Shown piece after piece: positions 620-8,242 of a stretch of 33,316 nucleotides of DNA (within the stretch, counting starts at the first letter, position 1; each line of letters starts with the position of its first letter). This stretch comes from Thermoleophilia bacterium (GTDB lineage Bacteria > Actinomycetota > Thermoleophilia > Gaiellales > SKUG01). A program made the translations under genes and the position numbers. The notes beneath the pieces were generated by a model that saw only the letters and a program-made list of their open reading frames with translations, was not told the DNA's origin and ran no database searches. The DNA lies in assembly GCA_025964435.1 (NCBI GenBank), contig JAOPYV010000052.1:1-33316 (forward strand). The letters run 5' to 3'.

Positions 620-636
620 ATTCCGTGCAAGACGCC

Positions 637-642
637 ATCCTA
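637..642 (-). promoter_or_regulatory. Putative -10 element (TAGGAT) for tRNA-Ser(GGA)
   Basis: TAGGAT on the minus strand 17 nt upstream of the tRNA 5' end. Confidence 0.4.
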
Positions 643-744
643 CAGAGCGGCAACCCCCGACGCATCCCCGTTGACGCTGCTCAGCATCCGGGTTCCACTG
701 GAGCCGCAGCCACGCCGAGCTGTATCCCGTGGGGGGAATATTCG

Positions 745-1668
745 ATGAGCGCCATTGCGCCGTCCGCATCCTGTTCGATGGCACCACCGCCCGGTAAAGG
801 CGGCTCGGTCGCGCCCAGCCGCGGCCTCGTCGCCACGCCGGAGCTGATCCAGCGCATCCAGGACGTCACCACGCGCCTCGCCGCACTCATGCAGGCGCTC
901 GCTGGCCAGCAGGCGCTCACGCCGCCACCGACGACGACGCCCACGACTCCGGCGCTGCCCGGCCCGCCCGCACCCAACTCACTTCCCACGGCGCCGCCCG
1001 TCGCGCCGGTCGCGCCCGGCACGGTCCAGACCGCAGATCCACTGCAGGGCTTTGGCGGCACCGGCGATCCCGCCGAGCGCGCACTGCTCGGCGCGACGAT
1101 GAACAAGCTCGGCACGACATCGGTCGGCCAGTCGCTGCTCAACTCGGTGCGCAACAAGGGCGTGAACCTCGACATCGTCTCCGACGCCGAGTTCAACCAG
1201 CGCTCGAAGGGCGCGACCGACGCGGTCGGCGTCTTCATCGGCAGCTCTACGGCCCCACCGACGGTGCTCGTGCGCGGCTCCGCGCTGAGCGCCAACTCCG
1301 AGAAGCAGCTCACGCACATCCTCAGCCATGAGCTGACCCATGCCGCACAGTGGGTCAGCGGCGAGACCAAGGGCGGCTACGCGCAGACCGCCGGCGCCGC
1401 AGCCAGCGGCATGAGCGCCGCGCAGCTCCAGGTCGGCGGCGTGCTCCAGCTCGAATCCGGGGCGGAGTTCGTCGCGAGCGCGATCGCGGCGCAGATCTCG
1501 GATCCGGTCACCTTCCAGCAGAAGGCGGCGGGCAACCTCGCAGGCGCCTATGCGATCAACTGGCAGTCGGTCAGCGACGGGGGCTACAACCCGCAGAAGC
1601 TCGCGATCGCCCAGGTCGTGTCGCCGACGGCGATGGGGCTCGTCCAGCAGGGCCTTGCCACGCGCTGA
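745..1668 (+). CDS. Putative zincin-type metallopeptidase (HExxH) with Pro/Thr-rich linker
   Basis: ILSHELTHAAQW motif (HELTH); start chosen at ATG 745 preceded by ggggggaata SD-like sequence; PPPTTTPTTPALPGPPAP linker. Confidence 0.65.
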   Translation: MSAIAPSASCSMAPPPGKGGSVAPSRGLVATPELIQRIQDVTTRLAALMQALAGQQALTPPPTTTPTTPALPGPPAPNSLPTAPPVAPVAPGTVQTADPLQGFGGTGDPAERALLGATMNKLGTTSVGQSLLNSVRNKGVNLDIVSDAEFNQRSKGATDAVGVFIGSSTAPPTVLVRGSALSANSEKQLTHILSHELTHAAQWVSGETKGGYAQTAGAAASGMSAAQLQVGGVLQLESGAEFVASAIAAQISDPVTFQQKAAGNLAGAYAINWQSVSDGGYNPQKLAIAQVVSPTAMGLVQQGLATR

Positions 1669-1680
1669 CGTGGGTCAGCG
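1663..1680. terminator. Compact hairpin between the zincin gene and the tRNA-Ser cluster, possibly bidirectional
   Basis: cgctgac-gtgg-gtcagcg: 7-bp perfect stem, 4-nt loop; includes the zincin stop codon. Confidence 0.4.
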
Positions 1681-1691
1681 GGGAAACAAGG

Positions 1692-1820
1692 TGCGATGGC
1701 GGCTCCCGTAGGCGGAGGGGGAGGGATTTGAACCCTCGGAAGGCTTGCACCCTCAACGGTTTTCGAGACCGTCCCGTTCGACCGCTCCGGCACCCCTCCA
1801 TGTAGGGAGCCGCCATCGCA
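1692..1820 (-). repeat. Perfect 16-bp inverted repeat enclosing tRNA-Ser(CGA)
   Basis: tgcgatggcggctccc (1692-1707) and its exact reverse complement gggagccgccatcgca (1805-1820); 5-nt spacer to the tRNA on each side. Confidence 0.9.
1713..1799 (-). tRNA. tRNA-Ser(CGA)
   Basis: GGAGGGG/CCCCTCC acceptor stem, anticodon loop acggt-ctCGAaa-accgt, long variable arm, GGTTCAAATCC T-arm. Confidence 0.95.
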
Positions 1821-1821
1821 A

Positions 1822-1911
1822 CGGAGAAGGAGGGATTCGAACCCTCGATAGAGGTTGACCCCCTATACCTCCTTAGCAGGGAGGCGCCTTCAGCCACTCG
1901 GCCACTTCTCC
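1822..1911 (-). tRNA. tRNA-Ser(GCT)
   Basis: GGAGAAG/CTTCTCC acceptor stem, anticodon loop cctcc-ctGCTaa-ggagg, long variable arm, GGTTCGAATCC. Confidence 0.95.
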
Positions 1912-1922
1912 AGATGCTGCGC

Positions 1923-1928
1923 ACCCTA
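1923..1928 (-). promoter_or_regulatory. Putative -10 element (TAGGGT) for the tRNA-Ser(GCT)-tRNA-Ser(CGA) unit
   Basis: TAGGGT on the minus strand 11 nt upstream of the tRNA 5' end. Confidence 0.4.
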
Positions 1929-1965
1929 CCGTATGGCGGGCCCGTCATGAAGAGCGTCGGTCGGA

Positions 1966-2754: not shown

Positions 2755-4638
2755 ATGGTGCAGGCGTTTTCGTGCCGATACCGCCTATACGTGTCACCAC
2801 TCCTGCAGAACCAGCTTGATCGCCTCCTCCGCTTCGCCGCTGCGCGACGCGTCGGCATCCTCGCGCTGGTCGCGATCCTCATCGTCGCGGTGCCGACCGC
2901 GAGCGCGGCCCGCGCCAAGCTCATCCACGGCAAGACGCTGAAGAATCGCTCCGTCTCCGGCATGAAGCTCGGCCTCCACTCGATCACGAGCATGCACATC
3001 AAGAATGGTCAGGTGCTCTCGGCCGACATCCGTGACAGCAACATCATGGGCGTCGACGTCAAGAACGGCTCGATCACCGGCGCCGACCTCGCACCCAAGA
3101 CGATCACCGGCAGCCTGATCGCCGACCAGACGATCAGCGGCACTTCGATCAAGGACGGCACGATCGCCGCCAACGACCTTGCCCCCGGCGCAATCGATGC
3201 GCTGCGTACGTCGGTGTCGACCTCCCTCATCTCGGGCGCGATCACCGCTGACCTGATCGGCGACGGTTCGGTGACCGCCAGCAAGATTGCGGCCAACTCG
3301 ATCACCGGCGCGACGATCGCCAACGGTTCGATCACCGCGGCCGACCTCTCGGCTGGTGCCGTCTCCGGGGCGACGATTGCCGACGGATCGATCCACACCA
3401 ACGACCTGGCCGACGACGCCGTGGACACCGACAAGATCGTCGATGGCGCCGTGGACAACGCCAAGCTCGCGGATGGTTCGGTCGATGGCACCAAGCTCGT
3501 CGATGGGGCCGTGACTGGCGCCAAGCTCGCAACTGACACGATCGACGGATCACACCTCCTCGATGGCGGCGTTGGCAGCGACGACCTGGCGAACGATTCG
3601 ATCCTGACCAACCACATCGCCGACGGCACGATCACCGAGGACGACCTCGACCCGTCGATCGTGCTCGGTGGTGGCGGCGGTGGCCCGCTCGCCGACGACG
3701 AGGTGACGACGCAGAAGATCTTCGACGGCGCCGTGACCGCGCCCAAGCTCGGCGCCGGCGCAGTGACGGCCAGCGCGATCCTCGACGGCTCGATCATCAA
3801 CGCCGACCTTGGCGACGATTCGGTGACGAGCATCAAGATCGTCGATGGCACGATCGACACGGCCGATCTCAAGGACCAGGCAGTGACGAGCCTGAATATC
3901 GCAGACGGCACGATCGCTGGATCGGACATCGCGCTGAGCACGATCAACAGCACGCGCATCGCGGCCGGTGGCATCTCGATGAACAACCTTGCCGACGATG
4001 CCGTCCGCACGGCAAAGATCTACAACGGCACGATCCTCGCCGAAGACATCGCAATGGGTGCGATCACCACCGCGACGATCCAGAACGGCACCATCAAGGC
4101 CGAGGATTTGGCGGCGGGGGCGCTCGACGCCTCTGCGATCGCGGACGGCACGCTGCCCGCCGGCAAGCTCATCGCCGATTCGGTCTCGGCCACGCAGCTC
4201 GCGCCAGCCGCCGTCGACACGTCGGAGCTCAAGGACGGCTCGGTGACGCTCGCCAAGCTCGCTGGTGACGCGGTCGACACGACGAAGGTGCTCGACGGCT
4301 CGCTTGAGGCCGAGGACCTGTCCACCGCAGCACGCGCTGCGCTCGCAGCGCCCCCCGGTGGCGGCGCGGGAACGATCTATCGCAAGTCCTTCTCCAACGT
4401 CGCTGTCGTCGCGGCAGGCAGTGGTCAGAACATCGACGTGACGTGCACGAACCCGACCGACATCGCAATCAGTGGCGGCATTGCGTACGTCAGTGGCGGC
4501 ACGGCGACGGTGCGCAACACATTCAACAGCCCTTGGAGCGGGCCGACACCGGCCGTCGCCAGCGGCTGGTCGATCGGCGTCTACTCGGGCAGCGGAACCG
4601 TTACCGTCCAGCCCTGGGTCGTGTGCGTCACGCCCTGA
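2755..4638 (+). CDS. Decapeptide-repeat (tail-fibre/beta-solenoid-like) protein with N-terminal TM segment and distinct C-terminal domain
   Basis: About 42 tandem 10-aa units of consensus x-D-G-[ST/A]-[IV]-x-x-x-[DK]-[LI]; TM segment VGILALVAILIVAVPTASA; start uncertain (GTG at about 2790 also possible). Confidence 0.8.
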   Translation: MVQAFSCRYRLYVSPLLQNQLDRLLRFAAARRVGILALVAILIVAVPTASAARAKLIHGKTLKNRSVSGMKLGLHSITSMHIKNGQVLSADIRDSNIMGVDVKNGSITGADLAPKTITGSLIADQTISGTSIKDGTIAANDLAPGAIDALRTSVSTSLISGAITADLIGDGSVTASKIAANSITGATIANGSITAADLSAGAVSGATIADGSIHTNDLADDAVDTDKIVDGAVDNAKLADGSVDGTKLVDGAVTGAKLATDTIDGSHLLDGGVGSDDLANDSILTNHIADGTITEDDLDPSIVLGGGGGGPLADDEVTTQKIFDGAVTAPKLGAGAVTASAILDGSIINADLGDDSVTSIKIVDGTIDTADLKDQAVTSLNIADGTIAGSDIALSTINSTRIAAGGISMNNLADDAVRTAKIYNGTILAEDIAMGAITTATIQNGTIKAEDLAAGALDASAIADGTLPAGKLIADSVSATQLAPAAVDTSELKDGSVTLAKLAGDAVDTTKVLDGSLEAEDLSTAARAALAAPPGGGAGTIYRKSFSNVAVVAAGSGQNIDVTCTNPTDIAISGGIAYVSGGTATVRNTFNSPWSGPTPAVASGWSIGVYSGSGTVTVQPWVVCVTP

Positions 4639-7678: not shown

Positions 7679-8242
7679 CTACAGCTCGACGCGGTGGACG
7701 AGCACGGTGGGGCGCACGTCGAGGTCCCAGACCTCGACGCTGGCGAGCGAGCCGGTGAGCGGCAGCTCCGCGCTGACCTGCTCGAGCGCCGCGACGCGGT
7801 GCGGCTCGGCCACGGCGTAGGCGAGCGTCAGGTGCGGTGTCCAGGGACGCGCGAGCATCACCGGGTCGAGCTCCTCCTCGGGAATCGCCTGAGCGACTGC
7901 AGCGCGCGCGGCATGGAGCGGCCCACCGTCGGCGGGCTCGACGTAGACGATCCGGCCACCACCGAAGGTGTCAGCCGAGCGCAGGTCGAGCTCACGTGCG
8001 GCGCCGGCGAGCTGGACGGCTGCTGCGAGCGCGGCAGTGTGGGACGGCGAGGCGCTGCGCAGCATCGTCAGGTGCGGATGGAAGCGCGGCGCCGTGGCGG
8101 CTCCGGGCGCGATCAGGCCCGCCGCCTCGAGCCGCGCCGCGATCGCCCGCAGGGCTGCATCGAGCAGGGCGTCGGGTCGCAGCTCATAGCTGTAGCGCTG
8201 CCGCGGATCGTGCACGAAGCTGGTCGACGGCCTCTCCTTCAC
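7679..8242 (-). CDS. 2'-5' RNA ligase / 2H phosphoesterase family protein
   Basis: Two HxT motifs: FHPHLTML and WTPHLTLAYAV. Confidence 0.8.
   Translation of the reverse strand: MKERPSTSFVHDPRQRYSYELRPDALLDAALRAIAARLEAAGLIAPGAATAPRFHPHLTMLRSASPSHTAALAAAVQLAGAARELDLRSADTFGGGRIVYVEPADGGPLHAARAAVAQAIPEEELDPVMLARPWTPHLTLAYAVAEPHRVAALEQVSAELPLTGSLASVEVWDLDVRPTVLVHRVEL

What the first reader, a model, noticed from the sequence alone, without database searches (positions are those of the whole stretch)
1692..1820. tRNA-Ser(CGA) enclosed by a perfect 16-bp inverted repeat with symmetric 5-nt spacers
Seen: tgcgatggcggctccc at 1692-1707 and its exact reverse complement at 1805-1820, each 5 nt from the mature tRNA ends (1713-1799). 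The outer edge of the upstream arm begins 1 nt after the discriminator of the preceding tRNA-Ser(GCT). The precursor RNA could fold a 16-bp helix closing over the whole tRNA, like the processing stalks that enclose 16S/23S rRNA. The other three tRNA-Ser genes here lack such arms. Alternative: the 129-bp unit is a miniature terminal-inverted-repeat element carrying a tRNA as cargo. I saw no convincing target-site duplication (flanks aagg / acgg). This tRNA closely resembles tRNA-Ser(TGA), and CGA is often a dispensable isoacceptor, so both a duplication/mobile origin and a processing-stalk role are plausible.
Basis: partly seen in the sequence, partly recalled or inferred. Interest (0 to 1): 0.75.

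Follow-up and report, generated by a model that had tools for sequence, protein, structure and literature searches.

The report
tRNA-Ser(CGA) enclosed in a covarying helix
In one uncultured actinobacterial genus (class Thermoleophilia) a serine tRNA is transcribed inside a 15-18 bp RNA stem that evolution has kept paired although its letters changed; it is probably the end-of-transcript hairpin of a two-tRNA operon with the tRNA sitting in the loop, an arrangement I did not find in 281 other tRNA genes.

Summary
In detail: a perfect 16-bp inverted repeat (1692-1707 / 1805-1820) encloses tRNA-Ser(CGA), with 5-nt unpaired spacers. It is the only one of the genome's tRNA genes so enclosed, and the 16-mer occurs nowhere else in the genome, which argues against a dispersed mobile element. 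Two congeneric genomes have the same GCT-CGA tandem with a 15-18 bp helix at the same place. Their arms differ from the window's, but pairing holds: four pairs changed on both sides, two went to G.U, and one terminal pair was lost. Sequence beyond the helix does not align. In 299 genomes of the class only these three have it. So it is an RNA helix under selection, restricted to one genus. Its function is inferred. This genome typically puts a >=10-bp hairpin 0-11 nt after a tRNA (22 of 46 genes, against 8 of 600 random positions). The CGA gene lacks one; the helix's 3' arm sits there instead, followed by a U-enriched tail. Best reading: an intrinsic-terminator-like end hairpin of the GCT-CGA operon whose loop is a whole tRNA. 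The mobile-element reading is disfavoured. No RNA data exist, and only three species are available.

The parts
1822..1911 (-). tRNA-Ser(GCT), first gene of the two-tRNA transcript
   Evidence: Rfam tRNA 61.7 bits; ARAGORN; tandem conserved in two congeners
1805..1820 (-). 5' arm of the enclosing helix (UGCGAUGGCGGCUCCC); begins 1 nt after tRNA-Ser(GCT)
   Evidence: perfect complement of 1692-1707; covaries in congeners
1800..1804 (-). 5-nt unpaired leader spacer (UACAU)
   Evidence: sequence; somewhat variable in length in the congeners
1713..1799 (-). tRNA-Ser(CGA), mature part, enclosed by the helix; last gene of the transcript
   Evidence: Rfam 55.8 bits; identical 87 nt in G003
1708..1712 (-). 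5-nt unpaired trailer spacer (CCUAC); CCA is not encoded
   Evidence: sequence
1692..1707 (-). 3' arm of the enclosing helix (GGGAGCCGCCAUCGCA)
   Evidence: duplex -36.5 kcal/mol
1678..1691 (-). U-enriched tail after the helix (CCUUGUUUCCCCGC, 5 U in the first 8)
   Evidence: background 8-mers carry 1.55 U on average, P(>=5)=0.017; congeners 3 and 5 of 8
1912..1945 (-). presumed promoter region upstream of tRNA-Ser(GCT) (GGTAGGGTGCGC, aligned to GCTAGGCTGCGC in both congeners); no promoter match found
   Evidence: short conserved block in the alignment; sigma-70 scan negative; inference

Best explanation
tRNA-Ser(GCT) and tRNA-Ser(CGA) are transcribed together. The 5' arm lies in the spacer between them and the 3' arm follows tRNA-Ser(CGA) by 5 nt. 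Once RNA polymerase has made the second tRNA and the 3' arm, the folded tRNA brings the two arms together and they zip into a 15-18 bp helix. Shown by comparison of sequences: the helix exists as a selected RNA structure in this genus. Inferred: it works as the end-of-transcript hairpin of the operon, an intrinsic-terminator-like stem with a weak U tail of the GC-rich type, whose loop is the whole tRNA; it may also protect the 3' end. RNase P and RNase Z can then cut in the unpaired 5-nt spacers to free the tRNA. A role as processing platform is compatible with this and may coexist.
For: Helix and selection: same place in G000, G003 and G001; 97.9% of cells paired against 36-59% when slid; four pairs changed on both sides, plus two G.U. 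All three fold with the helix closed. Sequence outside the helix does not align, while arms and tRNA do. Terminator role: 22 of 46 tRNA genes here carry a >=10-bp hairpin starting 0-11 nt after the 3' end, against 8/600 random and 0/46 on the 5' side. The CGA gene has no such local hairpin in any of the three species, but its 3' arm occupies that place. The tail has 5, 3 and 5 U in 8 nt, against 3.1 for the 22 ordinary hairpins and 1.55 background. Arm duplexes of -30 to -39 kcal/mol against -18 to -26 for six of the ordinary hairpins. Streptomyces terminators likewise carry only 3-4 U in 10 nt (PMC12207403).
Against: About half of the tRNA genes of this genome lack a downstream hairpin, so its absence is not remarkable in itself. 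The loop is 97 nt, far beyond ordinary terminator loops, and no terminator-like site was called. The U tail is weak in G003 (3 of 8) and begins 2-4 nt after the stem. Several relatives with the GCT-CGA tandem have neither helix nor strong downstream hairpin, so the operon does not strictly need one. Only three species are informative, and the shuffle control is modest (13/500).
Confidence: 0.5

Rival explanations
1. Processing stalk: the helix is cut by RNase III (or another double-strand nuclease), like the leader-trailer helices of 16S and 23S rRNA, separating tRNA-Ser(GCT) from tRNA-Ser(CGA) and giving defined ends for final trimming.
For: Same geometry as rRNA leader-trailer helices (PMC10250234). 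RNase III homologues in all three genomes (E 4e-38 to 4e-43, though below the family cut-off). The helix starts 1-2 nt after tRNA-Ser(GCT) in all three, so cutting it would free both tRNAs. The 5-nt unpaired spacers leave RNase P and RNase Z sites accessible.
Against: No other tRNA gene here has it although all must be matured. tRNA maturation in bacteria does not ordinarily need RNase III (own knowledge). It does not explain the U-enriched tail or the lack of an ordinary hairpin after this operon.
Confidence: 0.3
2. Order-of-processing or folding control: pairing of leader and trailer delays RNase P on tRNA-Ser(CGA), or keeps the two arms from mispairing with the tRNA, so that the GCT tRNA is released first.
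For: With the 5' arm alone the acceptor stem is predicted to form with P 0.30, 0.000 and 0.001 in the three species; with both arms P 0.997, 0.62 and 0.99. Leader pairing next to the cleavage site slows bacterial RNase P, and a leader stem-loop orders processing in E. coli valVW (PMC9433436).
Against: Shuffled leaders of the same composition mispair as badly in 7-20% of cases, so the competing hairpin may just reflect the C-rich leader and G-rich acceptor strand. The 5-nt unpaired spacers would reduce any block of RNase P.
Confidence: 0.12
3. Mobile element with terminal inverted repeats and a tRNA as cargo.
For: Perfect terminal inverted repeats around a 129-bp unit.
Against: Single copy in the genome; orthologous place in three species with arms diverging in a paired manner, including G.U pairs that make sense in RNA; no target duplication. 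The GCT-CGA tandem exists without arms across another family of the order, so the tRNA did not arrive with the arms.
Confidence: 0.02
4. Chance, or a one-off palindromic duplication without function.
For: High G+C content makes short inverted repeats common.
Against: 16 bp perfect against a maximum of 12 in mismatched flank pairs; retained with two-sided changes in two other species.
Confidence: 0.03

Closest known systems
Leader-trailer helices of bacterial 16S and 23S rRNA precursors (RNase III processing stalks)
   Same: A long helix of flanking sequences closes over the whole mature RNA, supported by covariation (PMC10250234).
   Different: Encloses an 87-nt tRNA; 15-18 bp; restricted to one genus and one isoacceptor; RNase III cleavage not shown.
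Intrinsic terminators of GC-rich actinobacteria (Streptomyces type: long stable stem, few U)
   Same: GC-rich 15-18 bp stem directly after the last gene; 3-5 U in the first 8-10 nt; no strong U tract (PMC12207403).
   Different: The loop is a complete tRNA (97 nt) instead of 3-13 nt, so standard terminator finders cannot see it.
Eukaryotic pre-tRNAs with paired 5' leader and 3' trailer
   Same: An unpaired bulge at the mature ends followed by a paired region farther out, as described for eukaryotic pre-tRNAs (PMC9705548).
   Different: Bacterial; a helix of 15-18 bp; it lies within a two-tRNA operon; no La protein or Pol III terminator is involved.
Ordinary hairpins following tRNA genes in this same genome
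   Same: Start 0-11 nt after the tRNA 3' end, 10-21 bp, weak U tail.
   Different: They are local hairpins with 3-10 nt loops that do not involve the 5' flank of the tRNA.

Membership tests
Enclosing (leader-trailer) helix of a precursor RNA | 5' and 3' flanks of the mature RNA are complementary and close over it | tested here: met
   16 bp perfect; MFE structure closes it in three species
Enclosing (leader-trailer) helix of a precursor RNA | Compensatory changes between the arms in relatives | tested here: met
   four two-sided changes, two G.U, one break at the outer end
RNase III processing stalk | Cleaved by RNase III in the helix | not testable with these tools
   only the presence of an RNase III homologue was checked
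RNase III processing stalk | RNase III gene present in the genome | tested here: met
   one homologue in each of three genomes, E 4e-38 to 4e-43, below TIGR02191's curated cut-off
Intrinsic terminator | GC-rich stem directly after the last gene | tested here: met
   3' arm starts 5 nt after the discriminator base; 12 of 16 pairs are G-C; duplex -36.5 kcal/mol
Intrinsic terminator | U-rich tail after the stem | tested here: inconclusive
   5, 3 and 5 U in 8 nt: above background and like other hairpins of this genome, weak by general standards
Intrinsic terminator | Short loop (3-13 nt) | tested here: not met
   97 nt between the arms, filled by a folded tRNA; the scan with loops of 3-8 finds nothing
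Intrinsic terminator | Transcripts end in the tail | not testable with these tools
   no RNA data
Mobile element with terminal inverted repeats | More than one copy, target duplication, or empty sites | tested here: not met
   single copy; no duplication at the flanks

The most novel reading that the evidence does not exclude
A bacterial intrinsic terminator whose loop is a complete functional tRNA: folding of the last tRNA of the operon brings the two halves of the terminator stem together, so that transcription ends efficiently only after a correctly folded tRNA has been made, a built-in coupling of tRNA folding to termination.
Probability: 0.3. Interest if true: 0.72.

Novelty: new variant of a known kind. 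Interest (0 to 1): 0.5.

Why it matters
Enclosing helices are textbook for rRNA precursors, but I found no report of one around a bacterial tRNA in the open-access papers searched. If the helix terminates transcription, a tRNA can serve as the loop of a terminator, which loop-limited terminator finders miss and which would tie termination to tRNA folding. If it is an RNase III stalk, it is a tRNA matured by the rRNA route. Either way the prediction is sharp and testable by mapping two RNA ends and by arm-swap mutants.

Tried and rejected
Mobile-element reading: the 16-mer occurs only twice genome-wide; among 129 genomes of the order a pattern with both arms hits tRNA units only in G000 and G001, G003 escaping because of its G.U pair. 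A scan of genome contigs with a CGA-tRNA pattern was too broad (alphaproteobacteria and others), but it gave CGA genes of many phyla as controls: none carries such a helix; the next best is 11 pairs within 30 nt, or 13 with the 3' half 25 nt away. A covariance model over 299 genomes of the class: the three congeners score 149-157 bits and the next 105.6. A three-way switch (5' arm pairing with the tRNA's own 5' strand) looked striking but was weak against shuffled leaders (p 0.07-0.20). The minimum-energy comparison of 3' flanks did not separate tRNA flanks from random DNA (65% against 60% below -15 kcal/mol); strict stem length did.

Full report
What is there. The window belongs to a 3.22-Mb draft genome in 213 contigs, 88% complete. 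It is a member of the Thermoleophilia: its congener G001 has a contig of the same length and content as JAOPYW010000180.1, 'Thermoleophilia bacterium isolate RYN_238'. Four tRNA-Ser genes lie on the minus strand. Read in the direction of transcription, tRNA-Ser(GCT) (1911-1822) is followed after one nucleotide by UGCGAUGGCGGCUCCC (1820-1805), UACAU, tRNA-Ser(CGA) (1799-1713), CCUAC, GGGAGCCGCCAUCGCA (1707-1692), then CCUUGUUUCCCC. The inverted repeat is perfect. It is not chance: the longest stem among about 2,550 mismatched flank pairs of this genome's tRNAs is 12 bp, seen once, and the fold has z = -5.

It is a selected RNA structure. Only three genomes held here, all of one genus, carry the tandem with the helix. 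The two tRNAs are nearly identical in them, the sequence beyond the helix is not alignable, and the arms differ but remain paired. Relative to the window, G003 has A-U to G-C, G-C to U-A and one G.U; G001 has C-G to U-A, U-A to C-G, one U.G, and one broken pair at the outer end. 97.9% of cells pair, against 36-59% when the partner is slid by 1-3 columns; four pairs carry changes on both sides, while slid versions give 0 or 1. The G-C to U-A change at the outer end depends on an ungapped alignment there; the other three two-sided changes do not. Wobble pairs point to RNA rather than to a DNA-binding palindrome (inference). All three precursors fold with the helix closed over the tRNA.

Distribution. 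Of this genome's tRNA genes only this one has it. Relatives of another family in the same order have the GCT-CGA tandem with spacers of up to about 36 nt and no helix. A covariance model searched over 299 genomes of the class scored the three congeners at 149-157 bits and everything else at 105.6 or less. In 281 distinct tRNA genes, including CGA genes of many phyla, the next best stem score within 30 nt was 11. The arms therefore most likely arose within this genus around an older tandem. A fourth congener (G002, 64% complete) has neither tRNA in its assembly, and the only other genus of the family (G004, 52% complete) shows only a TGA gene.

What it does (inferred). This genome has a clear style of ending tRNA transcripts: 22 of 46 tRNA genes have a hairpin of at least 10 pairs starting 0-11 nt after the tRNA, against 8 of 600 random stretches and none on the 5' side. 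The 8 nt after these hairpins hold 3.1 U on average. The CGA gene has no such local hairpin in any of the three species. Instead the 3' arm of the enclosing helix lies at exactly that place, with 5, 3 and 5 U in the next 8 nt; background is 1.55, and five or more occur in 1.7% of background 8-mers. Weak U tails after long stable stems are also what Term-seq found in Streptomyces (3-4 U in 10; PMC12207403). I therefore favour an end-of-transcript hairpin, probably an intrinsic terminator, whose loop is the folded tRNA. The 5' arm starts 1-2 nt after tRNA-Ser(GCT), again the usual distance for an end hairpin, so the structure can equally be described as the hairpin that follows tRNA-Ser(GCT) with a second tRNA nested in its loop.

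Rivals. An RNase III stalk as for rRNA has the same anatomy (PMC10250234), and RNase III homologues exist in the three genomes; nothing here excludes it, and both functions can coexist. The unpaired spacers beside the mature ends resemble eukaryotic pre-tRNAs, where a bulge next to the mature ends is often followed by leader-trailer pairing (PMC9705548), and should leave RNase P room: direct extension of the acceptor stem slows bacterial RNase P (PMC9433436). A folding effect is possible: the 5' arm alone is predicted to disturb the acceptor stem, and both arms together restore it. Shuffled leaders do this in 7-20% of cases, so I give it little weight. The mobile-element reading fails on copy number, orthology and the older tandem.

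Limits. Three species, draft genomes, no RNA data. The terminator role rests on position and tail, not on a measured 3' end. Novelty was checked only in open-access full texts, so an older report in a subscription journal could exist.

Noticed in passing
G000 loci L039-L087 and the window: 22 of 46 tRNA genes of this genome are followed within 0-11 nt by a long GC-rich hairpin (10-21 bp, often of the form CGAAGGCCCC...GGGGCCTTCG) with a weak U tail, an unusually uniform terminator style.
   Followed up: partly
window 1788-1812 (minus strand), and the same place in L010 and L011: The 5' arm is also complementary to the tRNA's own 5' strand (CGGCUCCCU / GGGGUGCCG type hairpin) in all three species; without the 3' arm the acceptor stem is predicted not to form.
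   Followed up: partly
L015, L017, L021 (spacers between tRNA-Ser(GCT) and tRNA-Ser(CGA)): In one genus of the sister family the spacer itself appears to hold a local GC-rich hairpin (the 32-36 nt spacers add -14 to -15 kcal/mol), another way of putting structure between the two tRNAs.
   Followed up: no
window 7699-7785 (+): ARAGORN calls a tRNA-Trp here that Rfam does not support; another tRNA-Trp with an end hairpin is in L043, so this one is probably false.
   Followed up: no
window 625-1668 (+): The 347-aa ORF converging on the tRNA operon carries an HELTH zinc-protease-like motif but matches no Pfam family.
   Followed up: no
window 2755-4638 (+): The 627-aa ORF made of degenerate 'ITG / DGS / DL' repeats matches no Pfam family.
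   Followed up: no
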